From IMG/VR virus record IMGVR_UViG_3300042340_000394, positions 1 through 64,000 of that record: a DNA stretch of 64,000 nt. One strand, written 5' to 3'. This document shows positions 4,152 through 44,838 of the stretch, piece after piece. The notes under the pieces are model-generated. The model had not been told where the DNA came from, did no database searches, and saw only the letters and a list, made by a program, of their open reading frames with translations. Position numbers and translations under genes: made by a program. Every line of letters starts with the position of its first letter. The first letter of the stretch is position 1. The DNA is from a virus.

Positions 4152-5063
4152 ATGGCTCAGTGGATTTCCAAGAACGGCACGTCGAGCGTCAACCTGAACG
4201 ATCGCGTCTCGTCGCTCCGCGTTCATCACCAGAAGATGGCGTTCGTGTGGCAGTACGACCTGCCGACGAACACCTGCATCCCCCTCACCAGCCTCCTCAC
4301 CGCCTTCACCAGCGGCATCGACGACACCACGGCCCTCCCGTTCGCGCAGGCGGGCTACTCGACGGCGACCGTGCCGAACAACTCGATCGACGTGACGTCG
4401 ACCTACAAGGGCGGCGCGTTCTCGATCACCGACCCCTGCATCATCCTCTCGGTGGGCCTCATGCCCGAGCAGACGCTCCGCGTGATGCCCCTCGCGAGCG
4501 GCACGTCGCTCGACTCGGGCACCCCCCAGGTTCCCCGCTTCGGCGGCACCGTGACCGACCTGTCGGCGCAGTTCGACGACTTTTGGGGCGCGATGGTGCA
4601 CCAGTCGTTCGCGAACGTGCTGCCCCCCGGCAACAACACGATGTGCTCGGCGTTCCTCGGTCTGCCCCAGTTCTTCAACTCGGGCATGGGCCAGTCGAAC
4701 TCGCCGAACCTCTCGACCCCCGGCCAGAACCGGCCCGAGGCGCGGTACACGTTCGCCAACGAGATCTTCGTCGAGCCGAACCTGCGGAACATGGGCGACT
4801 TCAACCCGAACCGCCTTCAGTTCACGTTCGGCCCGAGCGTCGCTTCGACGTCGGTCCCCGGCACCGCGTCCCTGAACGTGCAGAAGCTCCCCGCGCTCTC
4901 GGCCCTCACCGACAACGACCTCATCGTGCTCGACCTGATCGTGAGCGTCGAGTACGCGCGCGTGAAGTTCTCGGCCGACGAGTCGGAGTACGACGGCGTC
5001 GAGGAGATCGACAAGCGCAAGATCGCGTACTTCCGCGGCGCCAACTCGTTCTGCGGCATCTGA
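4152..5063 (+). CDS. Capsid-like structural protein, paralog 1
   Basis: A 303-residue protein. ATG 4152 has AAGGA 8 bp upstream and is preferred over ATG 4116. The sequence is beta-rich, low in charge and Cys-poor, as in many capsid proteins. It shares several blocks with the 13293-14147 product: GIDDT..(F/W)..AGYST, (V/D)TSTYKGGA, (L/Q)PPGNN, and near the end (E/D)IDKRK. First of three consecutive structural-looking genes. Capsid identity is inferred from composition, paralogy and context; no named family was recognised. Confidence 0.6.
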   Translation: MAQWISKNGTSSVNLNDRVSSLRVHHQKMAFVWQYDLPTNTCIPLTSLLTAFTSGIDDTTALPFAQAGYSTATVPNNSIDVTSTYKGGAFSITDPCIILSVGLMPEQTLRVMPLASGTSLDSGTPQVPRFGGTVTDLSAQFDDFWGAMVHQSFANVLPPGNNTMCSAFLGLPQFFNSGMGQSNSPNLSTPGQNRPEARYTFANEIFVEPNLRNMGDFNPNRLQFTFGPSVASTSVPGTASLNVQKLPALSALTDNDLIVLDLIVSVEYARVKFSADESEYDGVEEIDKRKIAYFRGANSFCGI

Positions 5064-8852: not shown

Positions 8853-9085
8853 TTGCCTGCCTTCTGGATCGCTTCGATTTGCGCCTTGTGCGCGTCGGTG
8901 AGCGCGACGTTCGACGTGCTCGTCGCGGCCTTGCCGCTGCCCGTGCAGTAGGCGCCCTTCGGCCCGTGGTTCGTTGCGCGGTAGCGACCGTAGGGGTCGC
9001 CCTTCGCGCGGAGTGGCTTGCCCATCATGTTCTGAGCGCGGACGACGCGCTGGCAGAACGGGCAGACGACGTGGATCTTGTTCAC
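8846..9085 (-). CDS. Small zinc-finger-like protein (79 aa)
   Basis: GTG 9085 overlaps the upstream stop as GTGA. Starts NKIHVVCPFCQRVV, a CxxC knuckle, with a later His and Cys (NHGPKGAYCTGSG) that could complete a zinc site. Probably a nucleic-acid or protein binding accessory factor. Confidence 0.65.
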   Translation of the reverse strand: MNKIHVVCPFCQRVVRAQNMMGKPLRAKGDPYGRYRATNHGPKGAYCTGSGKAATSTSNVALTDAHKAQIEAIQKAGKW

Positions 9086-9303
9086 GCCGCGCTCCCGTCG
9101 AGGTTCGGGAGCACGATCACGCGCGCTTCGAGGCGACGGGAGAGTTCTTCGCGGATCGCGACGATGCGCGCGCTGGTCGCCGCGTCGAAGCCTGTGAACC
9201 CTTCTACGTCGTCGGCGTGGGCGCCGTCGAGCACGTCGAGAAGGGCGCGGGCCGCGATGGCGGCGAGTTCGTCGTTGCGGCGATGCTTGAGTTCGTTGTG
9301 CAT
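9082..9303 (-). CDS. Small unknown protein (73 aa), first gene of operon
   Basis: ATG 9303 follows a class I box pair by 7 bp. Helical and Ala-rich; no family recognised. Heads the four-gene run 9303 to 8137. Confidence 0.6.
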   Translation of the reverse strand: MHNELKHRRNDELAAIAARALLDVLDGAHADDVEGFTGFDAATSARIVAIREELSRRLEARVIVLPNLDGSAA

Positions 9304-9310
9304 GGTGCCT

Positions 9311-9338
9311 CTTCTACGTCGCCCGCGTTGGTGATCTT
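9311..9338 (-). promoter_or_regulatory. Class I box pair (9303 gene)
   Basis: Minus strand AAGATC, 16 bp, TAGAAG; ATG after 7 bp. Confidence 0.65.
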
Positions 9339-9450
9339 GCGCGGCGTCGCCGATTTCTTGCGGAGGCCAAATAAACAACGGGCGCCGAAACGTTCGACGC
9401 CCGATGCCCCAAGAACTGCGGAACTTGGCTTGTCGTTCGCCGAAGCGAAC

Positions 9451-9823
9451 TGGTGGAGTCGCGGGGAATCGAACCCCGGTCCTGCACAACTAAGAGTCAG
9501 AGCATTTGCAGCGTTTCCAGTGGTTTATCAGCTACCGCGTCGCGCCCACTGGCAGGCTCAACACGATCGGCTCGACTGTTAGGTTTTCATCTGCGGCGCC
9601 CGTCGGCGGCGTCGCGGCCTAGCTCACTTTATTTGCACTCCGGGTCACCATGAGCGGGGTGACGATCGGAGAGGCTTTCGCGGGTCGCTCTCAGGCAGCG
9701 GCGGCGAAGGCGGGAACGAAGTTATCGTTCGCATTTGAGGCTTCCGCGCGTGTTTACGTTGTGCGCGAACTCAACGGCTGCACCTCAATCGTCGTCGCTG
9801 CCCAGTCGAAACCTTTCGACCCC
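9451..9823 (-). ncRNA. ssrA: tmRNA (transfer-messenger RNA)
   Basis: A one-piece tmRNA of 373 nt on the minus strand. The 5' end GGGGTCGAAAGGTTTCGAC pairs over 7 bp with 3' CGACTCC followed by A and an encoded CCA. The third pair is G-U, the alanine identity mark. The T arm is GGGG-TTCGATT-CCCC. The tag frame (9732 down to 9691) reads ANDNFVPAFAAAA then TGA, a standard degradation tag ending in hydrophobic and Ala residues. It would rescue stalled ribosomes and tag products for proteolysis. ORFs overlapping this region on the plus strand are spurious. Confidence 0.95.
9577..9589. repeat. 13-bp inverted repeat, arm inside tmRNA
   Basis: TGTTAGGTTTTCA, exact inverse complement of 9828-9840. 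Lies at tmRNA nucleotides 235-247. Confidence 0.8.
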
Positions 9824-9952: not shown

Positions 9953-10720
9953 CTACGGGATACCAGCCTCGTATCCCCGTCGCATCGCCTCGGCGTCCCC
10001 GTTGAAGCATCGGCGGCAGGCGTCGCACGCCCCGGTGCAGTCTGTGAGGGTGTTGAGCGGGCAGACGGCGGGATCGGAGATGTCGCTGCCGGTCGTCGGA
10101 GTGTATCGCTTGTAGAAGATCACCGAGACGCCGAGCGTCGCACCGGGCGGCGGGACTTCGTTCTTCTCGCACTGGTAGCTAAAGAAGTAGTTCCGGCTCT
10201 TCGGGGAGTTCGCGAGGAATGCGTCCTTCCGATCCAGCGACGTTTTGTCGAGCGAGAAGTGTACGTGCGCGTTTTCCCCGTGATCGATTTGTGCGGCGAG
10301 CGCAGGGATGCGCGTGACGATCCAGAGCGTGATGTCGGGCCGCGTCGCGATGATGCGGTTGATCGCGACCACCGCTGACGGGGTGAGGTCGCCTACGCCG
10401 TTCCACCTCAGATACGGGAGCTTGCCCTTGTCGTACTCTCTGATGATCCGCTCTGCGAACGCCACCGGGTCGGCATCCATCGTGCGTTGTGTGCGAGACT
10501 GTTTTCGGAGCGAAGACGGCCACGATTGGCTGTTGTTACCGGCGTAGCAGTCGCGGATACAGAGCTTACTCGGCTGACACGTACCTGCGATCGGAACGTT
10601 GACAGTCGCTCCGGCGACGCGGTTGGAGGATAGAACCTTCTCGCTCGGAGCGAGCATCGGCGACTCTTGAAGAATCGGCAGTGTCTTGCGGATGAGTTTC
10701 GCGACAGTCGGTTCCGTCAT
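9953..10720 (-). CDS. GP88-like Cys-rich phage protein (255 aa)
   Basis: ATG 10720 begins MTEPTVAKL. Cys48, Cys54 and Cys58 lie in AGTCQPSKLCIRDCYAG, followed by YLRWNGVGDLTP and a DITLWIVTR strand. This order resembles the phage GP88 family (TCP..C..CYA, then LRWH..GD, then a strand like VRFYAYTK). A second Cys cluster near the C-terminus (CPLNTLTDCTGACDACRRC) suggests a metal or Fe-S site. Biochemical role unknown. The gene stands alone upstream of the tmRNA. Family assignment is by motif memory. Confidence 0.7.
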   Translation of the reverse strand: MTEPTVAKLIRKTLPILQESPMLAPSEKVLSSNRVAGATVNVPIAGTCQPSKLCIRDCYAGNNSQSWPSSLRKQSRTQRTMDADPVAFAERIIREYDKGKLPYLRWNGVGDLTPSAVVAINRIIATRPDITLWIVTRIPALAAQIDHGENAHVHFSLDKTSLDRKDAFLANSPKSRNYFFSYQCEKNEVPPPGATLGVSVIFYKRYTPTTGSDISDPAVCPLNTLTDCTGACDACRRCFNGDAEAMRRGYEAGIP

Positions 10721-10796
10721 AGGCCGTACCTTTACGTGATTGCGCGTCGAGTTTTCAACTCGCAAACGTAGTCTACGTCTGTAACGTATTAGATAT

Positions 10797-11060
10797 TCAC
10801 GACAATCGGCGATGCTCCGGCTCGATCCCCGACGTGGCGCAGTCGCGGAACGCCGCCTCCCACGTCGCACCGCGCCCGTACGCGATGGTCACCAGCGGGC
10901 GACCGTGCAGCGTGTACCGGACGCCCACGGCGTAGCGCCGCGCGGGCTCCGACGGTCCGAGGTCGAGCGCCATTCCCCCGTCGCCCCACCGAGCGCGTGC
11001 GTCCCGAAGCGCCGCCTCGCGGTCGAAGTTCGGCGGGCGCATTCTGCCACCGCGGCTCAC
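10797..11060 (-). CDS. Small unknown protein (87 aa)
   Basis: GTG 11060 overlaps the upstream stop as GTGA, preferred over ATG 11042. A compact beta-alpha domain (RRYAVGVRYTLHGRPLVTIA, then GATWEAAFRDCA). Last gene of the operon from 12033. Confidence 0.6.
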   Translation of the reverse strand: MSRGGRMRPPNFDREAALRDARARWGDGGMALDLGPSEPARRYAVGVRYTLHGRPLVTIAYGRGATWEAAFRDCATSGIEPEHRRLS

Positions 11061-13292: not shown

Positions 13293-14147
13293 GTGAGCGA
13301 TCGAGTTTCGTCCATGCCCCACAAGCACCACGCACTGGCGTTCGGGTTCCGCTTCGACGCGGAGACGCGTTCGCTGGTGCCCGTCACCCGCGAACTGCTC
13401 GCGTTCGAGCACGGGATCGACGACACGGTACGGTTCCCGTGGGTTCGCGCGGGCTACAGCACCGAGTACGTGCCCGACAACAGCACCGACGTGACGAACA
13501 CGTACGCTGGCGGCGCATGGTCGCGCGCGTGCCCCGTGTTGCTCACGGGCGTCACACTGGTGTTCCCGTCGATCGCCCGTGTCGTCGCCGCGAGCGACGT
13601 GAAGCACGTTCCGATCGACGACAAGCGCGAGGCGTTCGCGTTCCCGCGGCACGGTGGCGACGTTCTGCCCGACACGGCGACCGTCGCCGAACTGCAAGGC
13701 GTGCTCACCGACGCGCTCCTGCACGGCGGCGAAGCGCGCATCCAGCCTCCCGGCAACAACTCGTCGTGCTCCCTCTTCGTGGGGCCGACGCGGTTCCTCC
13801 GTGGCGACGACGGCACGATCGCGTGGCGCCCCGCGGGTCACGTCATCGCCGATCCGGTGGACGCGAAGACGCGCCGCGACGCGGAGGGCGCGATGTGCCA
13901 CCCCAACCGCATCGAGTTCGTGTTCCGCGAGAACGTGCGCAGCGTGCCGTGGCCCGTCACCCTCGACGCGCCCGCCGACGGCGCCTACGTGGTGGTCGAC
14001 TTCGACGTTCGCTGCGAGGTGGCGGAGATCGAGTTCTACAATTCGTTCGACGGCGCGAACGACATCGACAAGCGTAAGGTCGCCGCGCACATCGCCGCCT
14101 TCGGCCCCGAAGCGAACGGCCCGCACGCCGTCCCGAAGCGCGGTTGA
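13293..14147 (+). CDS. Capsid-like structural protein, paralog 2
   Basis: A 284-residue protein. GTG 13293 has GAGGAG 6 bp upstream, preferred over the GTG at 13263. The start VSDRVSSMPHKHHALAF matches NLNDRVSSLRVHHQKMAF of the 4152 product, and shared blocks continue to the C-terminal DIDKRK. Divergence is considerable, so the two are old duplicates. Two related capsid-type proteins could build two lattice positions; that is a hypothesis. Confidence 0.6.
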   Translation: MSDRVSSMPHKHHALAFGFRFDAETRSLVPVTRELLAFEHGIDDTVRFPWVRAGYSTEYVPDNSTDVTNTYAGGAWSRACPVLLTGVTLVFPSIARVVAASDVKHVPIDDKREAFAFPRHGGDVLPDTATVAELQGVLTDALLHGGEARIQPPGNNSSCSLFVGPTRFLRGDDGTIAWRPAGHVIADPVDAKTRRDAEGAMCHPNRIEFVFRENVRSVPWPVTLDAPADGAYVVVDFDVRCEVAEIEFYNSFDGANDIDKRKVAAHIAAFGPEANGPHAVPKRG

Positions 14148-15489: not shown

Positions 15490-15506
15490 ATTCGCTGTTG
15501 TGACCG

Positions 15507-15541
15507 CCCCTCCCCTGACGCTGCTCGGCTTCGGGGAGGGG
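15507..15541 (+). terminator. Strong hairpin between convergent genes
   Basis: CCCCTCCCC (15507-15515) pairs perfectly with GGGGAGGGG (15533-15541) around a 17-nt loop. No T-run follows, so intrinsic termination is uncertain. It could also protect 3' ends. Confidence 0.45.
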
Positions 15542-15618
15542 CTAACGCGGGGAAGCAGCAGAAATCCGCGAACGGTCGGTCGCCTTCGTAGCAGCAACGG
15601 TACGATCCCGTCAACCGC

Positions 15619-16555: not shown

Positions 16556-16945
16556 CTAGCTCCGCGCGGGGCGCACGTCTCGTCGCGCAACCCACTTCTC
16601 CGACGCGCCGCCGTGGCGGAACACGTACGAGACGCGAACCCGCGTCGCCGTCTCAGCGACGACGGTGCCGAACCGACGCGCGCCGTTCGTCCCCGCCGAC
16701 TTCGACGGGAACGAGACGCGCTGGCCCTCGCGCACGTCGAAGCGCCGGGTGTCGAGCGGGTAGTGGTCGAGCACGACGCCCCATGCGCCGAGGATGCGAA
16801 CCTGCGTGGCGCCCGCGGAGAAGGCCGACTCTTCGATGCCGCGGCGGAGCACGTCGCGCTCGCGGAGAGCCGCCTCGCGGTCGGCGATATCGCCTTCGAC
16901 TGCGGGCCAGCGGACGGTTACGGCGTGGATCTTCTCGGTGAGCAT
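16556..16945 (-). CDS. Unknown protein (129 aa)
   Basis: ATG 16945 lies 4 bp from a class I box pair, well inside a longer open frame. Helical N-half (DIADREAALRERDVLRRGI) and a beta-rich basic C-half (RRFGTVVAETATRVRVSYVF). No family recognised. Confidence 0.65.
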   Translation of the reverse strand: MLTEKIHAVTVRWPAVEGDIADREAALRERDVLRRGIEESAFSAGATQVRILGAWGVVLDHYPLDTRRFDVREGQRVSFPSKSAGTNGARRFGTVVAETATRVRVSYVFRHGGASEKWVARRDVRPARS

Positions 16946-17848: not shown

Positions 17849-18565
17849 ATGGCTCGATCGTGGTTCTCCCGTAACGGCGTCGAGGTTGCCGCTGGCGTCG
17901 CCGCGGTGACTGGCCTCGCCGTGCTCCTATGGCCCCGCAACTCCGAGGCGTCCGCCATGCCGCTCAACCGTTCCACCGCCCTCGCCGACCTCCGCGCGGA
18001 GTACGCCGCGATGTACGACGCCGCGCAGATCCGCCCCGAACGTCTCGCATCGGTCGATCGCGTCGTTGACGTGCTCGCCTCGCACCGCGACCGCTACGAG
18101 CGCGCCGGGAACCCCGTCGGCGTGCCGTGGTACGTCGTCGCCGCGATTCACTCGCTCGAAGGCGGCGGGTCGTCGGGACGATTCACCGGGCACCTTCACA
18201 ACGGCGACCCGCTCACGGCGCGAACGGTTCACGTACCTGCGAACCGCCCCGTGGCGCCTCCTACAGCGGGCGAGGGACAACCCTATACGTGGGAGGAGAG
18301 CGCCACCGATGCGCTCGCACGTTTCCGCGGGTGGGGAGACTGGAGCCTCCCGGCGACGCTTTGGCAACTCGAAAAATACAACGGGTTCGGCACGCGCTCG
18401 CGTGGCATCCCGACGCCGTACCTGTGGTCGTTCACCGACCGATACGCGAAGGGCAAGTACGTTCGCGACGGCGTGTGGGATGCGAACGCGGTGAGCGGTC
18501 AAGTCGGCGCCGCCGCGATCCTCAAGCGCATGGAACAGCGCGGGCTCATCGCGATCCCGAGGTGA
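17849..18565 (+). CDS. Membrane-anchored peptidoglycan-lytic enzyme (lysozyme-like)
   Basis: A 238-residue protein. N-terminal MARSWFSRNG is followed by one membrane helix (VEVAAGVAAVTGLAVLLW). The enzyme domain (residues about 85-238) matches a phage lysin family by its motifs: AIHSLEGGG with likely catalytic Glu104, FTGHLHNGDPLT, TWEESATDAL, LEKYNGFGTR and the VSGQVGAAAILKRM end. It would cleave peptidoglycan glycan strands at entry or release. The membrane anchor suggests a virion-membrane or signal-anchor enzyme. The same anchor DNA recurs at 25776. Stop overlaps the next GTG. Confidence 0.85.
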   Translation: MARSWFSRNGVEVAAGVAAVTGLAVLLWPRNSEASAMPLNRSTALADLRAEYAAMYDAAQIRPERLASVDRVVDVLASHRDRYERAGNPVGVPWYVVAAIHSLEGGGSSGRFTGHLHNGDPLTARTVHVPANRPVAPPTAGEGQPYTWEESATDALARFRGWGDWSLPATLWQLEKYNGFGTRSRGIPTPYLWSFTDRYAKGKYVRDGVWDANAVSGQVGAAAILKRMEQRGLIAIPR

Positions 18566-19227: not shown

Positions 19228-19964
19228 CGGGCGATCTTCTTCGCGGCGTCGCTGAGTTTCCGCAGCGCGACGGCCTCGATTTGGCGAACACGCTCGCGAC
19301 TCACGCCGATGCGGTCGCCGATTTCTTGCAGCGTCTCCTCCGGGTCGTTGAGGTAGCGCGCTTCGACGATCAGGCGTTCACGGTCGGTGAGCCCCGACGT
19401 TGCGAGCATACGATGCGCGAGGGCCGATCGCTGCGTCGCCTCGGCGGCTTCTTCTGCGGTCGGCCCATCGTCCGCGAGTGTGTCTTCGAGCGTCTGCGGG
19501 TGCTCCGATTGCTGGTCACCGACGACTTCGGAGAGCGAACGTTCGCCGAGCGAGAACGTGAAGAACGCCCTCGCATCCCAGTGTCCGTGCGAGTCGCCCG
19601 TGAACGCTTGCGCAAGAACATCCTCGACACCCGACGTAGTGTTCGTCCCGCGGCGCTCTAACACGCGGAACACGCGCGCCACGGCGGCGGGAACGACGCC
19701 GATGCAGCGCGAGCGACGCCATTCCTTGATGGCACGTCCGCGCATGCAGGAATAGGCGTAACTCCCGAACTCGACGCCCTCGTCGGGGTCGTATAGTTCT
19801 GCGGCGCGGTACAATTCGAGCCACGCCGACTGCGTGAAATCGTCCCACTTCTCGCGGTCGCGGATCGTCTTGCGGACGGCGGCGTGCATCACGCCGATGT
19901 GCGTGGCGGCGAGCGCAAGCGCCTCGCTCGGGGAACGTTTCGGTTCGCGTCTTGTGAACGTCAT
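19224..19964 (-). CDS. Sigma-70 family sigma factor
   Basis: A 246-residue protein. ATG 19964 overlaps the methyltransferase stop as ATGA, so it is the second gene of that operon. Region 2 is about residues 39-85 (WDDFTQSAWLELYRAA, FGSYAYSCMRGRAIKEWRR). Region 4 is about 190-240 with a clear helix-turn-helix (LQEIGDRIGVSRERVRQIEA). The middle is replaced by an acidic linker. It may direct host RNA polymerase to one of the two promoter classes described here; which one is unknown. Confidence 0.9.
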   Translation of the reverse strand: MTFTRREPKRSPSEALALAATHIGVMHAAVRKTIRDREKWDDFTQSAWLELYRAAELYDPDEGVEFGSYAYSCMRGRAIKEWRRSRCIGVVPAAVARVFRVLERRGTNTTSGVEDVLAQAFTGDSHGHWDARAFFTFSLGERSLSEVVGDQQSEHPQTLEDTLADDGPTAEEAAEATQRSALAHRMLATSGLTDRERLIVEARYLNDPEETLQEIGDRIGVSRERVRQIEAVALRKLSDAAKKIAR

Positions 19965-22531
19965 CGCCGCAGGAACCCGTGATCGTACACGCCGTCTTGC
20001 AGTCGCGCGGCGAGGGCCTTGTGCGCGGCGGTGAGCTCCGCCCACTCCGCGGGCAACAGTTCGCGCCAGAGGTGCTTGCTCTGGTAGCAACCGGAATCCC
20101 ACGCGGCGAGGTGCAGTTCCGGTCGGCCCGACGCGAACGACTCGCGCAGCGGGAGTGACTTCACCCACAAGGCGTCGAGAAGATCGAGCACCTTGCGCGC
20201 GTCGGCGGAGAGCGTGAGCGACGGGAGAACGTGGGCGAAGTACGGGTCGCCCGTCACCTCCCACGGCTGCGCCGTCGCCTCGCCAGTGAAGTGATTGCGC
20301 CCGATCTTGACCGTCGGTTCGGCCTTGCAGTCGCGGTAGAGCGACGACGTTTCGCGCGTGTCGAGCGCGGCGAGCGACGCCTCGCGGGTGCGCCAGAACC
20401 AGTGGTTTTTGATGCGCCACGACTTGCCCTTGTACGGCACGTCGCGCATGGCGGTGCAGTTGTTAGAGCCGTGCAGGAGCGCGTAGACGTGGCAGTCGTC
20501 GACCCAGCGGTTGTAGGCCGCGGACGCCTCGGTTTTCGCAGTCGGCGCGAGGTACTCGTCCTTGTCGTTGATCCAGTTCCCGGTGACGAGCTTGCGGGCG
20601 GCGAAGAGCGAGACGACACGGCGGTAGTTCGCGGGCAGAACGGAGAACCCGGTGGGCGTCATCTTCGATGATCCCCACGCCGAAAGCGTGCCGCTGTCAT
20701 ACACGGCGTTAGAATTATTGACGAGGTATGCGATGTATCCTGACGCCATTTTTCCCGTCGCTGCCGCGCTAATAGTCAACCCGCTGCTGAACTGGGGCGC
20801 GTCGATTTTGCTTGTCAATGCCGCGGACTCTCTAGCCCAGTCCGATGCCGATTGATTGTCCGCGCAGTGCACTCGCTTGACGCCGATAGACTTCACGCGG
20901 AAGGCCACGACGTCTTTCGTCACGAGTGTTACGTTTGATCGCTTGCTCGACGTAGACCCGTCGTTCCATACGGTAAACGAAACGCCCCACGCTCCGCTAA
21001 CATCCGCGAAGTGAGAGGCTTGAAACATGAATCCGCTAACGTACTCGTGTCGTTGATACCACCACTCCCTGAACGGCTGGAAAGAACCACTGAACATAAA
21101 CCTGGGGTTCGAGAAAACCGCGACGGTAACGCAACTGAACCCGTAATGCTCCGCCACGATCGAAGCTCGAAACATGAACTGCGCATAAAGCTGGTGGCAC
21201 GAGGCTCCCATCGAAGCCGACTTCATGGAATCGTTGACAGCGTTCTTCGCGATGCCCGCCCTGCCTGCTTCACTCAACCCGGCGCCCGCGGTCCCGTACG
21301 GCGGGTTCATATAGAACACCAGTCGCTTGCCCGCCTTCGCCGCCGCGCGGAGCACCTTCTCGACCCGCGTCGGCACGCGGTTGTCGCCGTCTTCGAGCGC
21401 GAAGAACGGGGACTGCGCGTTGTCGTTAAGAAAATCGTACTGGAATACGTGCTGCCCGCCCCACCCTTGCTCGCGCATTACGTTCACGTCGGGGCGTTCG
21501 GCGGTGCTCGAAATGAGGCACCCCCAGTCGTTGTAGTCGCGCGTGAGGTTGCCCGTGCCCGCGGCGCAGTCCCACACGACGCACTCGCTCCGCCAGTTCG
21601 CGCCGAGCACACGTTCGAGTTCCTTGTTCGCTTGCTCGGACCAGATGGCCGGTGTGAAGAACGCTCCTTGACGGCGGCGCGCATCATCTTCGACGAGTCG
21701 GTCCTTGTCGGCGTAAAACGCCTCGACTTCGGAGGGCTTGTACCCTTGCTCGAAGTGCGCGAAGAAACTGCGGTACTGGTCCGCGTTGACCAGCACGGCG
21801 TCGTCGTAACCGGGCACCACGAGCACGCCGCGCTTCGTCGGGTGCGGGTGAACTTCGTCGGGGTGGAACAGGCACCGCAGGAACACATCGACTTGCTCCG
21901 TCGGCGTGAGCGCGCCCTTGCCCTTCTCCGGGTTCTTGAAAACGTTGTCGCGCCAGTACACGAAGATCGCGCTCAGGTTCGTGCGCGTCGCGCGGACGTG
22001 ATGCGTGTTGCCCGCCGCGAGTGTCTCGATCTTCGTGAGCACATCACCGAAGTCGAGGTCACCGTTGACGTCGTAGACGTAAGGCAACAAGTTGAACCCG
22101 CTCACCAGCGCACGAGTGAGTTCCGGCGATCCCGCCGACGGCGCGACGTTCCAGTCGAGGCTCATGTTGAGGAACCCACGCACGGCGTCGGTCGCGAGCA
22201 CGAAGCACTCGTTCCTGTCGCCGACGAGGAGCACGTTCGGCATCGCCGCGCCGCTCGCCTCGAACTTCTTGAGGTACAGGATGAGTTGCCCGAGAACCGA
22301 GCACACGGGGCCTCGCGACTTGAAGTCGAGGTCGTACTTCGCTTCGAGAAGCAGGCGCACGCTCACCGGGGGCGTGCTCGCGCTCCACACGGCGAGTCCG
22401 TCGGTGGCGTGCGGCGAAGACCACGAGGCGTCGGGGCGTTGCGCGGAAACCTCCGCGCGGTAGGCGTTCTCGACGTCCTTCTCCACGCGAGAGACGGCGA
22501 GTGCGGCGCTCAATGCAGTACGTTTGCTCAT
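19961..22531 (-). CDS. N6-adenine DNA methyltransferase with nuclease-like N-domain
   Basis: An 856-residue protein. GAFFTP (289-294) and DCAAGTGNLT (321-330, SAM motif I) precede the catalytic NPPYG (409-413), the order of Type IIG/Eco57I-like enzymes. The first 200 residues contain LLEAKYD (Glu63, Lys65) in a strand context, which may be a PD-(D/E)xK nuclease site or a relic. The rest could be target recognition. Either a restriction-modification fusion or an orphan methyltransferase against host restriction. Followed without a gap by the sigma gene. Confidence 0.85.
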   Translation of the reverse strand: MSKRTALSAALAVSRVEKDVENAYRAEVSAQRPDASWSSPHATDGLAVWSASTPPVSVRLLLEAKYDLDFKSRGPVCSVLGQLILYLKKFEASGAAMPNVLLVGDRNECFVLATDAVRGFLNMSLDWNVAPSAGSPELTRALVSGFNLLPYVYDVNGDLDFGDVLTKIETLAAGNTHHVRATRTNLSAIFVYWRDNVFKNPEKGKGALTPTEQVDVFLRCLFHPDEVHPHPTKRGVLVVPGYDDAVLVNADQYRSFFAHFEQGYKPSEVEAFYADKDRLVEDDARRRQGAFFTPAIWSEQANKELERVLGANWRSECVVWDCAAGTGNLTRDYNDWGCLISSTAERPDVNVMREQGWGGQHVFQYDFLNDNAQSPFFALEDGDNRVPTRVEKVLRAAAKAGKRLVFYMNPPYGTAGAGLSEAGRAGIAKNAVNDSMKSASMGASCHQLYAQFMFRASIVAEHYGFSCVTVAVFSNPRFMFSGSFQPFREWWYQRHEYVSGFMFQASHFADVSGAWGVSFTVWNDGSTSSKRSNVTLVTKDVVAFRVKSIGVKRVHCADNQSASDWARESAALTSKIDAPQFSSGLTISAAATGKMASGYIAYLVNNSNAVYDSGTLSAWGSSKMTPTGFSVLPANYRRVVSLFAARKLVTGNWINDKDEYLAPTAKTEASAAYNRWVDDCHVYALLHGSNNCTAMRDVPYKGKSWRIKNHWFWRTREASLAALDTRETSSLYRDCKAEPTVKIGRNHFTGEATAQPWEVTGDPYFAHVLPSLTLSADARKVLDLLDALWVKSLPLRESFASGRPELHLAAWDSGCYQSKHLWRELLPAEWAELTAAHKALAARLQDGVYDHGFLRR

Positions 22532-26923: not shown

Positions 26924-27363
26924 CCGGTTGTTCGCGCTGCACCGCACACGACCGGGCGAACGCTCAGGGGCGCCTTGTCGTAATACGTGGGGCTTGCGGC
27001 ACGTCCGAGCGCCATGAACGGTTCGTCGTGCAAGAACGTTTCAACGACGATCCCAGCGGCGTCGAGCACGTCGTAGCGCAGAACGCCCTTCGCGCGACCG
27101 AGGATCTCCGCGGAACGTGCGATCGCGAGAATGGCATCGGACGGTTTCTCGACCGCTCCGGTGCTCGCGTCTCGCGAGACGTACCAGCCCTCGTCGCAGT
27201 CGCGCAGTTGCGCAATGCACGACGCGCGGTGGGGGAACTCCGCAGCGAAGCGCAGAAGGTCGATCGCCGCGCCGACCCACGCCGCGGGGACGGCGAAGCA
27301 CTTCGCCGAGTCGAAGGAGGTGGCGATGACGTAGCGGACGGAGGGGGCGTGCGTCGTGTTCAT
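26920..27363 (-). CDS. Unknown protein (147 aa)
   Basis: ATG 27363 follows a class I box pair by 8 bp. Mixed alpha-beta with RYVIATSFDSAKCF at the start and ETFLHDEPFMALG near the end. No family recognised. Confidence 0.65.
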   Translation of the reverse strand: MNTTHAPSVRYVIATSFDSAKCFAVPAAWVGAAIDLLRFAAEFPHRASCIAQLRDCDEGWYVSRDASTGAVEKPSDAILAIARSAEILGRAKGVLRYDVLDAAGIVVETFLHDEPFMALGRAASPTYYDKAPLSVRPVVCGAARTTG

Positions 27364-27371
27364 GGTGTCCT

Positions 27372-27399
27372 CTCTTACGCTCCGAGTGACGGCAACCTT
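27372..27399 (-). promoter_or_regulatory. Class I box pair (27363 gene)
   Basis: Minus strand AAGGTT, 16 bp, TAAGAG; ATG after 8 bp. Confidence 0.7.
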
Positions 27400-27964
27400 A
27401 CGCCGTCGCCGCCGATTTCTTCGCGAGGCTCGCGAGGCACTTCGGGCACGTCGCCGCGTCGGCATTCTCAGTCACGGCGCGGTTCGCATAGAACGACGTG
27501 ATGCGGCGCGCACACGCCGTGAAGCCGCGGTAAGAACCGCGTGCGTGCACGAGCCGCGGCTTCTTCTTGACGGTGACAACCTCCGCGAGAGCCCACGTCT
27601 CGATCGCACGAAGGCAGTACGCCGCGTCGCTGGCGATGTAATCGCGCCGCTTGGTGAGTTCCTGTGCCGCGGCATCGCGGAGGGCGGCCTGCGCATCGAG
27701 CGCGTCGAGTTGCGCACCCGTGTCGAGCGCCATTGGCAGGAGTACATCCGCCACGAACGCGACGGTGCAGTCGGGCGATAACTCGAACGGGAGGCGATTG
27801 CTCCCGAAGCACGGGCCATGATGGTCCGCGTTGCCGTACACCGCCGCTCGGCGCACACCGGGCTCGCGCCAGTCGTGGCGCTTTACGCGACCGTCCACGT
27901 CGAGCGCCATCGGCAGGAAACACGCGCCGCAAGTGCCCTTGACCGTAATCTTCGTGGTTGCCAT
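27398..27964 (-). CDS. Zinc-ribbon protein, tandem paralog 1 (188 aa)
   Basis: ATG 27964 is 4 bp from a class I box pair. N-domain: GTCGACFLPMALDVDG, RHDW, HHGPCFGSNRLPFELSPDC, a putative zinc site of Cys and His. A coiled middle follows, then a C-terminal ATCPKCLASLAKKSA knuckle. The N-domain recurs in the neighbour at 27995 and in the 58277 protein. Known in phages as an uncharacterised ribbon-like module by pattern only. Confidence 0.7.
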   Translation of the reverse strand: MATTKITVKGTCGACFLPMALDVDGRVKRHDWREPGVRRAAVYGNADHHGPCFGSNRLPFELSPDCTVAFVADVLLPMALDTGAQLDALDAQAALRDAAAQELTKRRDYIASDAAYCLRAIETWALAEVVTVKKKPRLVHARGSYRGFTACARRITSFYANRAVTENADAATCPKCLASLAKKSAATA

Positions 27965-29848: not shown

Positions 29849-29873
29849 ACGAGCAATTCAATCGGGGCGACGT

Positions 29874-29901
29874 AAGGTCGCCTCGGCTGGCGACGTAGAA
29901 G
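29874..29901 (+). promoter_or_regulatory. Class I box pair (29910 gene)
   Basis: AAGGTC, 16 bp, TAGAAG; ATG after 8 bp. Confidence 0.75.
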
Positions 29902-29909
29902 GGGCCACC

Positions 29910-30128
29910 ATGAACACCGCGACCACCGAACCCGTCACCTACTCCGTGACCTTCTCCGCAGGATGGACCGCGGAGGCGAACGACGCGCTCGCCGCCATCG
30001 CGGAGCAGCCTCGCACACTCGAAGAAGTGCGCGATGCGTGCGACGAGTACAACGTGAGCGCGTCGCTGTACGACGCAGCGGGCTTCGGGCGCGGGTTCGT
30101 GCACCGCGCCGCGTACAGGCTCATTTGA
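29910..30128 (+). CDS. Small unknown protein (72 aa)
   Basis: ATG 29910. Starts an operon of four short genes (29910, 30145, 30399, 30542). Helical C-half with AGFGRGFVHRAAYRL. Confidence 0.6.
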   Translation: MNTATTEPVTYSVTFSAGWTAEANDALAAIAEQPRTLEEVRDACDEYNVSASLYDAAGFGRGFVHRAAYRLI

Positions 30129-33075: not shown

Positions 33076-33399
33076 ATGGGCATTCTCAAGTCCGAAGCAC
33101 TCCATTACGTCGCGCGGGCGCTGCGTGACGGGATGGTGATTGTCACCGACGAACTCACCGCGGGGCCGATGGGCAACGCGACCGGCACGGGGCCGGAGTT
33201 CAAGATCCACGTCGATGAGGCGTTCCCGAACGGTATGCCGAAGGGGACGTACCCATTCTTCGACGCGCGCGACGCGGCGATGGTCGTGGTCGACCGCTAC
33301 GGTCGCGGCAAGGCGCGGCTTCTCGTGGTCAACGCTTACGAGCGCAAGGGGCTCCGGGCGCCCGACTACGTTCGCGAGAAGAAGCGCCGCACGCGCTAG
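33076..33399 (+). CDS. Unknown protein (107 aa), paralog of the 43575 product N-half
   Basis: ATG 33076 after GAGGAA. ALHYVARALRDGMVIVTDEL matches AARYVARAIGDGIVPLTDDV of the 43575 protein, and both continue with a strand and an aromatic FFDARDAAMVVVDRY / DFLTVHAAARAFVDF helix. Function unknown. Confidence 0.65.
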   Translation: MGILKSEALHYVARALRDGMVIVTDELTAGPMGNATGTGPEFKIHVDEAFPNGMPKGTYPFFDARDAAMVVVDRYGRGKARLLVVNAYERKGLRAPDYVREKKRRTR

Positions 33400-33439: not shown

Positions 33440-34468
33440 GTGCCCCGCCCTCGCCGACAACGCCACGACGCCTCCCCGCAGCGCGAACTCCCCTTCGCCG
33501 CTACCCCTCGCGCTCGCGGCTCGTGGCACTCCGTCGAGTTGCCCGATGCTCGCGTGTTCGGCGGCGATGCGACGGAGCGCATCCCGCTCACGCCCGCCCT
33601 CGTCGAAGCGTTCCGCCGCGCGTACCTCGCCGCCATCACCGCCGCACGCAACGCGGGCGACTACCGCGAGGCGCTCCGTGCACGCGACACGCTAGCGGAA
33701 CTCGCGGCGACCTACGGCGCCTACCTCCGCGGACTGCGCGCGGGCCTCGACGCTGCGGGCATCGCACCGAAGGCGGTCGCCTCGTTCGTCGCGAAGGTCT
33801 CGCTCGCGCCCGGTGTGTTCTCCCCGCCGATCGAGGAGCGGAGCCTCGCCGCGTGGCAACGCGATGCGTTCCAGACGTTCACACGGCGCCGTGGCGAGTG
33901 GGAGCGCGCGGCGTGGTCGCGGGCGCAAGTGGCGTTCGCGGACCTTGCGTCGCTCGCGTCGAGTCGCCCCGTCACCCTGTACGTTGCTCGCGCGGAACGG
34001 GTCGTCGTCGAGGGCGTGAGCGTCGGCTTGCGACCGATGGCGGAGCGCACCGCGGCGCGGGCGCTCGACGTGCTCGCGGAGGCGCTGCGGCTGCTCCGGG
34101 TGCAGCGGCGCGTGCCGTGGCTCCTCGCGAGGATGCCGCCGCTCGTGCTCACCGTGGAGTGCGTTTCCGACGGCGTGCGGGTGGCGGGTGGCTACGAGCC
34201 GTCGAGGCGCACCGTCGAGGTGTGCGCGTCGCTCGCAGCGGACGAGACGCCGCGGGAACTTGCGCGAACGCTCGCCCACGAGGCGGGGCACCACGTATGG
34301 CGAACGTCGCTCTCCGGGGCTGCGCAGGCCGCGTGGGAAGCGTTCCGCAAGGGCGGGCACTGGATCAGCGACTACGCGCAGAAGAACGCAGAAGAGGCGT
34401 TCTGCGAGGCGCTAGGGTTGCTCGCGGCCTATGGCCCGCGGGCCGTCGGTGCGGAGGTCGCCGCGTAA
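33440..34468 (+). CDS. Zinc metallopeptidase-like protein, 3' end displaced by IscB element 1
   Basis: 342 residues as it stands. GTG 33440 is 6 bp from TACGCT. HEAGH at 280-284 is the HExxH zinc signature, and KNAEEAFCEALGLL supplies a likely third ligand Glu, as in zincins. The TAA (34466-34468) belongs to the IscB element. The original frame resumes at 36208 for 25 codons (WLQTVVPTVRTYANGRR and on) and then overlaps the next gene as ATGA. The enzyme therefore lost a basic tail of about 25 residues but keeps its catalytic part. The sequence before the HExxH does not match a family I know. Confidence 0.8.
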   Translation: MPRPRRQRHDASPQRELPFAATPRARGSWHSVELPDARVFGGDATERIPLTPALVEAFRRAYLAAITAARNAGDYREALRARDTLAELAATYGAYLRGLRAGLDAAGIAPKAVASFVAKVSLAPGVFSPPIEERSLAAWQRDAFQTFTRRRGEWERAAWSRAQVAFADLASLASSRPVTLYVARAERVVVEGVSVGLRPMAERTAARALDVLAEALRLLRVQRRVPWLLARMPPLVLTVECVSDGVRVAGGYEPSRRTVEVCASLAADETPRELARTLAHEAGHHVWRTSLSGAAQAAWEAFRKGGHWISDYAQKNAEEAFCEALGLLAAYGPRAVGAEVAA

Positions 34469-34777
34469 ACGACCTCATCCTGAAGGGTGAGGCTTTCTAA
34501 GGAGACTGAGAAAGCCCATGTTTACCAGTGTTAGCGAGGGTAGGGTTGGCAACCCGTTCGAGCCTCGCTACGTCGATCGGAACGCTTGCCTCGGGCAACG
34601 TACGGATGCTTCCTCAGTCCGTACCCACTTGCAGTGCGTGCAGTAGTCACGTCGGGTCAGACAGAAACGGGTGCGCACATGGGCGACGATCGACATTCAC
34701 GAGGGGAGCACCGCGGGGGAGCCACTCCGCGGTCGTCACGACAAGGCCGCAAGGCCCCAACTGAGGCGGTAACGCCA
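34446..34777 (+). ncRNA. OmegaRNA (HEARO RNA) of IscB element 1, with 5' guide position
   Basis: Directly precedes iscB. The first about 20 nt (34446-34465) lie in the metallopeptidase gene, where IscB guides sit. The scaffold opens with an 8-bp hairpin (34473-34492), has GGGTT-ggc-AACCC and GGCC-gcaa-GGCC hairpins, and a 7-bp stem at 34710-34733. Nucleotides 34493-34709 are identical to copy 2 except for one base, while both flanking stems differ by compensating changes. RNA function is known for this family; the exact 5' end is inferred. Confidence 0.85.
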
Positions 34778-36207
34778 ATGATCGAGAAGAATCGTTCCGA
34801 AGAAGCGTGGGTTCCGGTGCTGGACAAGCGTGGCGTCCCGCTGATGCCGTGCCATCCCGCGCGAGCGCGTCAGATGCTTCGTGCGGGGCGTGCCGTGGTG
34901 GCGCACCACACGCCGTTCGTGATCCGACTCAAGGATCGCGTGGGCGGCGACGTTCAACCCGTCCGCGTCTGCGAAGATCCCGGCAGCAAGACCACGGGCA
35001 TCGCCGTGGTCCGCGAGATTCCCGCCGCCAGCGACGGCGATGGCCCGACCCGCGTCGTGCTGTTCAAGATGGAACTCGCGCACCGCGGCGCCGACGTCCA
35101 CAAGCAGATGGGGCAACGTTCGGCGAACCGCAAGCGCCGTCGCAGCGCGAACACGCGCTACCGTGAGCGACGGTACAGCAACCGCGCATCGTCGCGCCGC
35201 AAGGGTCGCCTTGCACCTTCGCTGCGTACGCGCCTCGACACGACGCTTTCGTGGACGCGGCGCCTCATGCGCTGGTATCCCGTCGCCGCCGTGAGCGTCG
35301 AGCGCGTTCGCTTCGACACGCAACTCATGGAGAACCCGGAGATCAGCGGCGTGGAGTACCAGCAAGGCACCCTCGCCGGATACGAGACGCGCGAGTACGT
35401 TCTGGAGAAGTGGGGCCGCTCGTGCGCCTACTGCGACGCGGGGAACGTGCCGCTCAACCTCGATCACGTCGTCCCGCGAGTGAGCGGCGGGAGCAATCGT
35501 CCGAGTAACCTCGTGCCCGCGTGTGTGCCCTGCAACCAGAAGAAGGGCGCGCAATCACTGACGACGTTCCTCAAGCGCGACCCGAAGCGTGCGGCACGCA
35601 TTCTCGCGGGGCTCAAGAAGCCCCTGCGGGACGCGGCGGCGATGAACTCGACGCGATGGGCGCTGGATCGTGAACTGCGGGCGCTCGGGGTGCCCGTCGA
35701 GGCAGCATCGGGCGGGCGAACGAAGTGGAACCGCCACCGCTTCAACGTTCCGAAGACGCACGCCAACGACGCCGTGTGCGTGGGAAACGTCGGCGGCGTG
35801 ATCGGCGCCGACACGCAGACGCTATACGTGGAGTGCATGGGGCGCGGCACGTATCAACGCCAACACTCGAACGCCTATGGTTTCCCTCGTGGCGCTCCGA
35901 AGATGCGTGAGAAGCGCGTACGGGGCTTCGGCACGGGTGATATCGTGCGCGCCGTGATGCCGAAGGGAAAACACGCCGGTATGCACGTCGGACGTGCCGC
36001 AGTCCGCGCGAAAGGTCAATTCGCGGTCTATGCGCAGGGCAAGAGGATCGACGTGATTTGGAAACACTGCCGCGTGTTGCAGCGCGCCGATGGCTACCGC
36101 TACGCGTGGCGCGAGGAGAAAAACGATGCGGTTACTAACCGATAGGCGCTTCCCCACCGCCATGAATGGCTGTGCACCCGCGCTGGCAAGTCATGACGAC
36201 CACCGCC
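34466..36207 (+). mobile_element. IscB/HEARO element 1 (about 1.74 kb)
   Basis: Ends defined by comparison with element 2: left TAAACGACC, right GACCACCGCC. No terminal inverted repeats and no transposase. It contains only the omegaRNA and iscB. GCCGCG occurs at both junctions (34460-34465 and 36205-36210), so the exact joint is ambiguous by a few bases. Inserted in the metallopeptidase gene. Confidence 0.8.
34778..36145 (+). CDS. iscB: IscB RNA-guided nuclease, copy 1
   Basis: 455 residues, intact. PLMP at 21-24 defines the PLMP domain. RuvC-I EDPGSKTTGIA has Asp67, then an Arg-rich bridge helix (about 108-133), RuvC-II AVSVERVRFD with Glu175, an HNH insertion with CAYC (216-219), DH (229-230), Asn244 and CVPCN (249-253), and RuvC-III THANDAV with His328 and Asp331. 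All catalytic positions are present. With the omegaRNA it should cut DNA matching the 5' guide and next to a 3' flanking motif. No transposase is near, so a homing role is inferred. Confidence 0.95.
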   Translation: MIEKNRSEEAWVPVLDKRGVPLMPCHPARARQMLRAGRAVVAHHTPFVIRLKDRVGGDVQPVRVCEDPGSKTTGIAVVREIPAASDGDGPTRVVLFKMELAHRGADVHKQMGQRSANRKRRRSANTRYRERRYSNRASSRRKGRLAPSLRTRLDTTLSWTRRLMRWYPVAAVSVERVRFDTQLMENPEISGVEYQQGTLAGYETREYVLEKWGRSCAYCDAGNVPLNLDHVVPRVSGGSNRPSNLVPACVPCNQKKGAQSLTTFLKRDPKRAARILAGLKKPLRDAAAMNSTRWALDRELRALGVPVEAASGGRTKWNRHRFNVPKTHANDAVCVGNVGGVIGADTQTLYVECMGRGTYQRQHSNAYGFPRGAPKMREKRVRGFGTGDIVRAVMPKGKHAGMHVGRAAVRAKGQFAVYAQGKRIDVIWKHCRVLQRADGYRYAWREEKNDAVTNR

Positions 36208-38777: not shown

Positions 38778-39221
38778 ATGCCCGCCAGCAAGCGTCGCTC
38801 GCTCCGCAACCCGCCGTCGAAACGTCCGTCGCTCGCGGAGCAGTGGGACGAGTACGACGCCATCGTGCACCGCATCTTCCACGAACACGGTCAAGAGTTG
38901 TGGTGGATCGACGAGGGCAAGGCGTGGGCGCAGCGGTTCGTGACGAACCCGGTGGCGATGGCCCGACTTGACCGTGGGAAGTTCGACCCGGAGGAGTACG
39001 CTGCGGACCGATGGACGGACACGGCGTCGGAGGCGGAGGCGCGCGACTCGATCGGACACATGGGCGCGATGATCGGGTTCACCACTGAACTGGAGCGCCT
39101 CACCGGGCACAAGTTCCACCGCTTCAACACCGCGGATGCCGCCGACTACATCAAGACGTGGAGCGTGCCGATGGCGCAGATCCAGAAGTCGGTCAAGAAG
39201 CCGCGCGGTCCGCGACCGTAA
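38778..39221 (+). CDS. Tagged protein, tandem paralog 2 (147 aa)
   Basis: ATG 38778 with AAGGA upstream. Tag MPASKRRSLRNPPSKR. Same domain as the previous gene. No class II promoter directly before it, so it is probably read through from 38258. Confidence 0.7.
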   Translation: MPASKRRSLRNPPSKRPSLAEQWDEYDAIVHRIFHEHGQELWWIDEGKAWAQRFVTNPVAMARLDRGKFDPEEYAADRWTDTASEAEARDSIGHMGAMIGFTTELERLTGHKFHRFNTADAADYIKTWSVPMAQIQKSVKKPRGPRP

Positions 39222-39302: not shown

Positions 39303-40565
39303 ATGACCATTTTTCTCGACCACCACTCGACCACCCCTCCCTCCGAAGCCGTGATCGACGCCGTGGTGCGGGCGATGCGCGTCGCTGGCAACGCCTCGTC
39401 GTCGCACGAGGGTGGGAAGGCGGCGTCGAAGATCGTCGAGGATGCCCGCCGCTGCGTCGCCGAGACGATGGGCGGCGTCGATCCGGCAGACATCTACTTC
39501 ACTTCGGGCGCTACAGAATCGAACGGCATCGTACTCAGGTCAATCGTCGATGGCGAGAACGAGCGCGGGCGGCGCCCTCACATCGTCACTTCTGCGATCG
39601 AGCACAGCGCCATTCTCGTGCCCCTGCGTCAACTCGCGAAGCGCGGGCAATGCACGTTCACGGCAGTCCCCGTGGGCGCGTCGGGCATCGTGAACCCCGC
39701 CGACGTGGCCCGTGCGATCCGCCCCGACACGGTGCTCGTTTCCGTGATGGGCGCGCAGAATGAACTCGGCGGTATCCAGCCGATCGAAGAAATCGCAGCG
39801 GTCGCGCACGCTTACGGCGTGCCGATGCACTCCGATCTATGCCAGTCGTTCGGCAAGATTCCGCTGCGCGGCTTCGACTTCGCGAGCGCGAGCGCGCACA
39901 AGCTCAACGGACCTACCGGCGTGGGCTGCGTTCTGATTCCGCAACGTTTACTCGCGCGTATGTCGGTGCCTGCGCTCGGTGGCTCGCAGCAAAACGGCGT
40001 GCGCGGCGGCACGCTGAACCTGCACGGCATCGCCGGTTTCGGCGCCGCGTGCCGCGAAATGCGAACGTGGAACGTGGGGCCGCAGAACGTCGGCGGGCTC
40101 GCGGGTGAGGCGCTGCGACTCTGCCGCCTGCGCGACCTTATGCTCCGACTCCTGCGCGAGTCGCTCGGCGACGAAATCGTTCAGGTGAACGGCGCGATCG
40201 ACGCTCCGATCGGTTCGCCGCAAGCGACGAACGATCCGGCGCGACGACTGCGACTCCCGCACTCGCTCTCGGTTCGTCTCGTGGGCGTGTGCCCGATTTC
40301 GCTCGACGCCGCGGTGCGGAGCAAGATCGACGTGTCGGCGGCGGCGGCGTGCAAGTCGCTCGGCGGCGAGCGGAGTCACGTTCTCGAAGCGATGGGCATT
40401 CCCGACGATGGCGCGGTAGTTCGCATCGGCCTCGGCAAGTGCAACAACGAAGAGAACGTTCGCATGGCGGCGAAGGTGATTGCCGACGCGGCGATGCCGC
40501 TCGTGGGCGTAGGGTGCGACGTTCCCGCGGGCTGCGACGGCGGCGTGTGTCCGGCGCGGCGGTAG
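39303..40565 (+). CDS. Cysteine desulfurase (NifS/IscS type)
   Basis: 420 residues, full length. LDHHSTTPP start, SGATESNG, IEHSAI (His101), Asp178, and SASAHKLNGPTG with PLP-binding Lys200. The catalytic loop carries Cys350 in SAAAACKSLGGE, where IscS has SSGSACTS. It moves sulfur from cysteine to an acceptor. No scaffold, thiolation or phosphorothioation gene is next to it here, so the acceptor (tRNA, Fe-S or DNA modification) is unknown. Unusual in a virus. Confidence 0.9.
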   Translation: MTIFLDHHSTTPPSEAVIDAVVRAMRVAGNASSSHEGGKAASKIVEDARRCVAETMGGVDPADIYFTSGATESNGIVLRSIVDGENERGRRPHIVTSAIEHSAILVPLRQLAKRGQCTFTAVPVGASGIVNPADVARAIRPDTVLVSVMGAQNELGGIQPIEEIAAVAHAYGVPMHSDLCQSFGKIPLRGFDFASASAHKLNGPTGVGCVLIPQRLLARMSVPALGGSQQNGVRGGTLNLHGIAGFGAACREMRTWNVGPQNVGGLAGEALRLCRLRDLMLRLLRESLGDEIVQVNGAIDAPIGSPQATNDPARRLRLPHSLSVRLVGVCPISLDAAVRSKIDVSAAAACKSLGGERSHVLEAMGIPDDGAVVRIGLGKCNNEENVRMAAKVIADAAMPLVGVGCDVPAGCDGGVCPARR

Positions 40566-41102: not shown

Positions 41103-41330
41103 TTACCCGATCACCGCGTCGAGCGCGTCGACTCCGCTCTTGATCCGCGCCTCGATCGCACACACCGATGCGCCCTTGGTGGCGACGGTGAGTTCCGTGG
41201 CCTCGCACGGGTCGGCAACGTACTCCGCGATTGCGCTGCGGAGGCACCGACGCGCGGTTTCGAGTTGCGCGCGGAGCGTGCGGAGGTTCTGGCGAGCGGC
41301 TTCGAGTTGATTGCTGAATTGGTCTCGCAT
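41103..41330 (-). CDS. Small coiled-coil protein (75 aa)
   Basis: ATG 41330 follows a class I box pair by 7 bp. Heptad-like helix (NQLEAARQNLRTLRAQLETA). No family recognised. Confidence 0.65.
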   Translation of the reverse strand: MRDQFSNQLEAARQNLRTLRAQLETARRCLRSAIAEYVADPCEATELTVATKGASVCAIEARIKSGVDALDAVIG

Positions 41331-41337
41331 GGTCCCC

Positions 41338-41365
41338 CTTCTACGTCGCCAGCACGACGGACCTT
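41338..41365 (-). promoter_or_regulatory. Class I box pair (41330 gene)
   Basis: Minus strand AAGGTC, 16 bp, TAGAAG; ATG after 7 bp. Confidence 0.7.
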
Positions 41366-41434
41366 ACGCCGCGTCGCCGATTCCTCTCGCGCGCCGCGCA
41401 GCAAGCGGTGCGGCGGAAACCGACGGTGCGACGT

Positions 41435-44553: not shown

Positions 44554-44838
44554 ATGATCGACACGAAACCGTTTCTGTTCGACACGAGTAAAGACATCAA
44601 GAACCACACCGCGGTGAGTGTGTGGCTTCTCTCGGGCCGCAAGATCCGGGTGACCACTTCGCGGTGGGAGAACTTCGGCAACGAGCCCGACGACGTTAGC
44701 GCGAAAACCGAGCACTTCCACGACGGCCAGTGGCGCGAGGTGCTCCCGTGGCACCGCATCGAGGCCACGGGCGAGAACGAGACCCCCGCCGCGCACCTCG
44801 CCCTCGCAGCGCGCACGATCGAGTTTCTCGATGCGTGA
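44554..44838 (+). CDS. Small unknown protein (94 aa), first gene of operon
   Basis: ATG 44554. Aromatic, mixed fold (TAVSVWLLSGRKIRVTTSRW). Overlaps the next gene by 8 bp. First of a run of six genes reaching 46956. Confidence 0.6.
   Translation: MIDTKPFLFDTSKDIKNHTAVSVWLLSGRKIRVTTSRWENFGNEPDDVSAKTEHFHDGQWREVLPWHRIEATGENETPAAHLALAARTIEFLDA

What the first reader, a model, noticed from the sequence alone, without database searches (positions are those of the whole stretch)
9451..9823. A complete tmRNA inside a virus-like region
All features of a one-piece tmRNA are present, including G3-U70, CCA and the tag ANDNFVPAFAAAA. Viral tmRNAs are uncommon. It may rescue ribosomes on leaderless or degraded host mRNA late in infection, or support the unusual translation of this element.
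Basis: partly seen in the sequence, partly recalled or inferred. Interest (0 to 1): 0.7.

Follow-up and report, generated by a model that had tools for sequence, protein, structure and literature searches.

The report
Complete ribosome-rescue RNA (tmRNA) in phage-like DNA
The DNA carries one complete, normal-looking gene for tmRNA, the bacterial RNA that frees stuck ribosomes, inside a large mobile phage-like genome rather than a bacterial chromosome; this is an uncommon but already well-known kind of viral cargo.

Summary
Minus strand 9451-9823 is a complete one-piece tmRNA: ARAGORN, and Rfam RF00023 at 113.9 bits over all 374 positions. It has G3-U70, CCA, the tag ANDNFVPAFAAAA, and resolvable crossing helices for PK1, PK2 and PK4.

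The refuting condition, a host chromosome, is not met. The window is part of an 87.6-kb IMG/VR virus record. Two sibling contigs match its last 53 kb, and one runs 34.8 kb further. Both siblings begin at 34546, inside an exact IscB-omegaRNA repeat, so the join to the tmRNA arm could be an assembler choice. However, a roughly 56-bp start-site element recurs about 42 times in all arms, and tetranucleotide profiles agree at 0.81-0.90. The arms therefore belong to one kind of replicon. Virus status is probable, not proven: no terminase or capsid family matched.

Phage tmRNAs are known (2.3% of phage genomes, PMC9004378). A truncated IMG/VR scan gave 69 ARAGORN tmRNA calls. No SmpB is encoded, so host SmpB is needed. 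The tag ending AAAA is unusual and was not found elsewhere. Most likely role: extra trans-translation capacity. The proposed link to leaderless translation is unsupported.

The parts
9451..9823 (-). One-piece tmRNA gene (ssrA), 373 nt, 3' CCA encoded
   Evidence: ARAGORN; Rfam RF00023 113.9 bits, full length
9798..9823 (-). 5' part of the tRNA-like domain (acceptor 5' strand GGGGUCG with G3, D-loop GGUUUCGAC)
   Evidence: ARAGORN domain limits; pairing check
9451..9489 (-). 3' part of the tRNA-like domain (T-arm CGGGG-UUCGAUU-CCCCG, acceptor 3' strand with U70, CCA)
   Evidence: ARAGORN domain limits; P1 7 bp GGGGUCG/CGACUCC
9691..9732 (-). Tag reading frame: resume codon GCG to stop TGA, ANDNFVPAFAAAA*
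9743..9776 (-). Pseudoknot PK1 (CGUUG/CAACG crossing UUCGCGC/GCGCGGA)
9622..9663 (-). Pseudoknot PK2 (GUCACC/GGUGAC crossing GCUCAU/GUGAGC)
9517..9567 (-). Pseudoknot PK4 (AUCGUGUUG/CGACGCGGU crossing CCAGUGG/CCACUGG)
9379..9403 (-). Intrinsic-terminator-like hairpin just downstream of the tmRNA (11-bp stem, tail TTGTTTATTT)
   Evidence: consensus scan; function not tested
9301..9356 (-). Copy of the element-wide start-site motif, upstream of the next gene (9082-9303); it separates that gene's start signals from the tmRNA
   Evidence: nhmmer
9953..10870 (-). Upstream neighbour: GP88 family protein (PF17338, a family named from a phage gene), same strand
   Evidence: Pfam E 1.6e-17; PHROG phrog_1392
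34517..34710 (+). Exact repeat (omegaRNA region of IscB copy 1, near-identical to 47061-47254) in which both sibling contigs begin (34546): possible assembly join between the tmRNA arm and the rest

Best explanation
It is an intact, probably functional tmRNA gene carried as cargo by a large (at least ~122 kb if the contigs are joined), integrase-bearing phage or phage-like element. Inferred mechanism: host alanyl-tRNA synthetase charges it through G3-U70; host SmpB and EF-Tu deliver it to ribosomes stalled on broken mRNAs; translation resumes at the GCG codon; the tag ANDNFVPAFAAAA is added; UGA releases the ribosome; and host proteases remove the tagged product. The gene dose adds ribosome-rescue capacity while the element's genes are heavily expressed or host mRNA is decaying. 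Shown here: the RNA anatomy, its location in a non-chromosomal replicon, and the absence of SmpB from the contigs held. Inferred: expression, charging, tagging and benefit.
For: Complete structure and tag. IMG/VR virus record. Neighbours are phage-type genes: GP88, sigma factors, a virion structural repeat protein and an integrase on the element. The tmRNA arm shares the element-wide start-site motif with the other arms: 14 copies in the tmRNA arm, and a model built only from those finds 29 in the other arms, 0 in shuffled sequence and 0 in unrelated high-GC phage contigs; tetranucleotide correlation 0.81-0.90. No SmpB. [quoted passage not shown]
Against: No expression data. No terminase, capsid or secure portal gene matched, so the element could be a plasmid-like relative. 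The join at 34546 lies in a repeat and the siblings do not contain the tmRNA arm. The tag's C-terminus AAAA departs from the usual LAA, so degradation by ClpXP is uncertain.
Confidence: 0.78

Rival explanations
1. The tmRNA works as such, but the element is a conjugative or plasmid-type replicon or integrative island and not a virus.
For: No terminase, major capsid or strong portal match among 142 scanned proteins. Megaplasmids with expressed tmRNA exist, such as pMP7017 (PMC10832533).
Against: IMG/VR classes the record as viral. PHROG virion structural protein (6.9e-32), GP88 family and integrase matches. A family of its 841-aa protein occurs on many IMG/VR contigs. No relaxase or conjugation family surfaced in the Pfam tables.
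Confidence: 0.2
2. Assembly chimera: the arm with the tmRNA comes from another replicon (host chromosome or other element) joined at the IscB repeat.
For: Both sibling contigs begin at 34546, inside an exact repeat of about 184 bp, and the tmRNA is not in either sibling.
Against: The shared start-site motif and oligonucleotide signature run through all arms. A paralogous gene pair links the arms (33076-33399 and 43575-44186). No housekeeping genes lie in the tmRNA arm.
Confidence: 0.06
3. The RNA is a decoy or inhibitor of host trans-translation, as reported for the tRNA-like-domain-only molecule of phage DS6A.
For: A phage tmRNA-like domain can inhibit host tmRNA (PMC4131195). The tag end AAAA is atypical.
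Against: The reading frame, stop codon and pseudoknots are kept, which a decoy would not need.
Confidence: 0.07
4. It is an attachment-site relic or duplication: the element integrates in host ssrA and carries a copy to restore it.
For: The element has a tyrosine integrase, and tmRNA genes are common integration sites (PMC3203893).
Against: The whole gene is present, not just a 3' core. The integrase lies on the far arm (G001 743-1807), not beside the tmRNA.
Confidence: 0.06

Closest known systems
Bacterial one-piece tmRNA, ssrA (Rfam RF00023)
   Same: Full-length model match, tRNA-like domain with G3-U70 and CCA, resume codon, tag frame starting AND, pseudoknots
   Different: Located on a mobile phage-like element; tag ends AAAA, not LAA; no smpB alongside
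Mycobacteriophage tmRNAs (Bxz1, Wildcat and relatives; PMC4131195, PMC7474061)
   Same: Complete one-piece tmRNA on a phage genome; the Wildcat one is highly expressed in lytic growth
   Different: No sequence similarity beyond the 3' tRNA-like end; different tag and probably a different host group
Methylophage Melnitz and pelagiphage tmRNA (PMC9004378)
   Same: Phage-carried ssrA proposed to support translation during infection
   Different: Those are two-piece permuted and riboswitch-associated; this one is one-piece with no such riboswitch found
Huge-phage tmRNAs (PMC7162821)
   Same: tmRNA among phage translation genes; a 380-kb IMG/VR contig with a homologue of this element's 841-aa protein also has a tmRNA (tag GEDEYAMAA)
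   Different: Some huge phages also encode SmpB; this element does not, as far as held
Megaplasmid tmRNA of pMP7017 (PMC10832533)
   Same: tmRNA on a large extrachromosomal replicon
   Different: A conjugative megaplasmid of Bifidobacterium; no conjugation genes were seen here

Membership tests
tmRNA (RF00023) | Full-length covariance-model match above the gathering score | tested here: met
   113.9 bits against 47, positions 1-374
tmRNA (RF00023) | Alanine-accepting tRNA-like domain: 7-bp acceptor with G3-U70, T-arm, CCA | tested here: met
   P1 GGGGUCG/CGACUCC; encoded CCA
tmRNA (RF00023) | Resume codon and short tag frame with stop | tested here: met
   ANDNFVPAFAAAA* at RNA positions 92-133
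tmRNA (RF00023) | Pseudoknots PK1-PK4 | tested here: met
   Crossing helices for PK1, PK2 and PK4; PK3 only partly resolved
tmRNA (RF00023) | Tag C-terminus of ClpXP-type (LAA-like); usual but not strictly defining, since tags vary | tested here: not met
   Ends AAAA; none of 69 ARAGORN calls on viral contigs ends so, most end xLAA or xMAA
tmRNA (RF00023) | Alanylation, SmpB binding, trans-translation | not testable with these tools
   Needs biochemistry or genetics
Phage-encoded tmRNA | Gene lies in a viral genome, not host chromosome | tested here: inconclusive
   IMG/VR virus record and phage-type genes, shared motif across arms; but no terminase or capsid found and the join at 34546 is in a repeat
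Host chromosomal ssrA | Flanked by chromosomal genes, often smpB nearby | tested here: not met
   No housekeeping gene in the arm; no SmpB in any of the three contigs
Two-piece (permuted) tmRNA | Permuted gene order matching RF04321 | tested here: not met
   RF04321 only 31.9 bits, below its cut-off of 47

The most novel reading that the evidence does not exclude
The element's tmRNA is a specialised variant: its AAAA-ended tag is handled differently by host proteases from the host's own tag, so the element rescues ribosomes while sparing, slowing or redirecting degradation of the tagged proteins.
Probability: 0.1. Interest if true: 0.6.

Novelty: new member of a known kind. Interest (0 to 1): 0.3.

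Why it matters
It adds a tmRNA with a tag not found in the collections searched, from a poorly known high-GC phage-like lineage with no close DNA relative outside two sibling contigs. If the tag is functional and differs from that of the host, it offers a direct way to ask whether phages carry tmRNA for extra rescue capacity or to change the fate of tagged proteins, a question still open for phage tmRNAs.

Tried and rejected
(1) Host identification by tag: the degenerate DNA pattern for ANDNFVPA gave 2 viral and 7 genome stretches, none a tmRNA. (2) Host identification by tmRNA DNA: no hits in phages at 1e-5; at E up to 10 mostly the 3' tRNA-like end; 5 of 398 genomes from the phylum of a gammaproteobacterial MAG, again only the last ~35 nt. 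Myxococcota genomes could not be reached with the tools left. (3) Relatives through the helicase and the 303-aa protein: only two siblings, or none. (4) Relatives through the 841-aa protein: 12 contigs, but the five examined share almost only that gene, so it is a mobile phage gene, not proof of kinship. (5) Structure prediction of the 303-aa paralogue pair: pLDDT 41, fold hits to jelly-roll capsids without significance, not used as evidence. (6) Att-site relic and decoy readings considered and ranked low. (7) sigma-70 promoter scan upstream of the tmRNA: nothing found.

Full report
Check of the observation. ARAGORN finds one tmRNA in the window, at 9451-9823 on the minus strand, with tag ANDNFVPAFAAAA. 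Rfam's tmRNA model RF00023 matches it over its full length with 113.9 bits (gathering score 47), while the permuted form stays below its cut-off. The acceptor stem is GGGGUCG/CGACUCC with G3-U70, CCA is encoded, and crossing helices corresponding to PK1, PK2 and PK4 can be written out; PK3 is only partly resolved. Folding energy by itself is not exceptional (z = -1.40).

Is it viral? The window is bases 1-64000 of an 87,611-base IMG/VR virus record. The rest of that record and two sibling contigs were read. Both siblings match the record from base 34546 onwards, at 100% in all stretches compared except the repetitive end of the shorter one. The 87,860-base sibling agrees to the record's end and runs 34,794 bases further with no match to the record. 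If the contigs are joined the element is at least ~122 kb. Proteins on it include a UvrD-like helicase, sigma factors, a tyrosine integrase, a PHROG virion structural protein (phrog_23837), a GP88-family protein directly upstream of the tmRNA, PP2C, NUDIX and an ADP-ribosylglycohydrolase. No terminase or capsid family matched, so 'virus' is probable but unproven.

A weak point found here. Both siblings begin at exactly base 34546, and this base lies in an exact repeat (stretch of about 184 bp) between the omegaRNA regions of two IscB copies. The join between the tmRNA arm (1-34545) and the 53-kb core could therefore be an assembler decision, and the siblings do not contain the tmRNA. Three tests speak for the join, or at least for one kind of replicon. 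First, a ~56-bp motif recurs immediately upstream of start codons in all arms: 42 matches, 36 of them at or close to predicted starts. A model from the tmRNA-arm copies alone finds 29 in the other arms, none in shuffled sequence and none in unrelated 70% GC phage contigs. Second, tetranucleotide profiles of the arms correlate at 0.81-0.90, against 0.12-0.53 for other loci. Third, a paralogous pair links arm and core. The arm has no housekeeping gene.

Surroundings of the tmRNA. Reading along the minus strand: a GP88-family gene (10870-9953), 129 bases, the tmRNA (9823-9451), a terminator-like hairpin with a T-rich tail (9403-9379), then a copy of the start-site motif (9356-9301) before the next small gene. 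The tmRNA is thus probably transcribed alone or with the GP88 gene and ends at its own terminator. It is not preceded by the element's motif. This is inference from sequence.

How it works. The anatomy is that of a working tmRNA. The contigs held encode no SmpB (the same search found SmpB in the control bacteria), so it most likely uses the host's SmpB. The most likely role is added trans-translation capacity.

How common. ARAGORN made 69 tmRNA calls in the 95 loci held (some are doubtful or may be prophage flanks). None has a tag ending AAAA. A 380-kb contig that shares the 841-aa protein also has a tmRNA, with a different tag, whereas the closer homologues of that protein (61% and 57% identical) lie on contigs without one; those contigs share almost only that gene.

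Host. Neither the tag nor the RNA sequence identified a donor. The aspartate- and alanine-rich lipoproteins resemble, from memory, those of Myxococcota; this was not tested.

Verdict. A real, complete, well-placed tmRNA on a phage-like element: a new member of a known kind. The unusual tag end is the only feature that could make it more than that.

Noticed in passing
about 42 places in the window, L002/L003 and L020/L021, e.g. 9301-9356 (-), 27361-27418 (-), 29860-29912 (+), 41328-41382 (-): A ~56-bp conserved element (AAATCGGCGG..CGGCGTAAGGTCGCC..GGCGACGTAGAAGGGGCACCATG) sits directly before start codons across the whole element: probably an element-specific promoter and/or 5' leader.
   Followed up: partly
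34465-36145 and 47061-48702: Two IscB genes, each with an omegaRNA region (HEARO RNA at 34465-34714), about 84% identical overall with a near-exact 194-bp omegaRNA stretch; sibling contigs break there.
   Followed up: partly
G001 contig 1-34794 (L020, L021): Sibling contig IMGVR_UViG_3300044730_001993 extends the element 34.8 kb past the record's end, with a tyrosine integrase and a 711-aa protein with an ECF-type sigma domain.
   Followed up: partly
4152-5063 and 13314-14147: Two paralogous 303- and 277-aa proteins (36% identical) with no family match; a poor model resembles jelly-roll capsid proteins without significance. Possible virion protein.
   Followed up: partly
55632-56021 and 44831-45115: Two small proteins with weak matches to the ribosomal protein L7/L12 C-terminal domain (5.9e-5 and 0.0035, below the cut-off).
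   Followed up: no
39303-40565: Cysteine desulfurase, best NCBIfam match DndA (3e-72), on a phage-like element; no other DNA-phosphorothioation gene was noticed.
   Followed up: no
15501-15578 (-): CyVA-1 RNA (RF02965, 52.9 bits), an RNA whose function I do not know, on this element.
   Followed up: no
16653-16742 (-): ARAGORN's tRNA-Gly(ccc) overlaps a predicted gene (16556-16945) and is not among the Rfam matches; probably a false call.
   Followed up: partly
19961-22486 (-): An 841-aa protein without any PHROG or Pfam match whose homologues (29-72% identity) occur on 12 IMG/VR contigs of very different size, up to 380 kb; five examined differ widely in GC and otherwise share almost nothing: a widely exchanged phage gene.
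   Followed up: partly
many ORFs, e.g. 2219-2938, 17849-18565, 38778-39221, 41949-42539: Many proteins carry a short basic motif of the form RRSxRN(P/G/S), often near one end: 30 of about 200 predicted proteins over the three arms match a loose pattern. Possibly a sorting or processing signal.
   Followed up: no
L003:32-2203, L003:2418-4373: Two long proteins of NPMTTxGD...GG repeats matching a virion structural PHROG; the shorter sibling assembly diverges inside these repeats.
   Followed up: no
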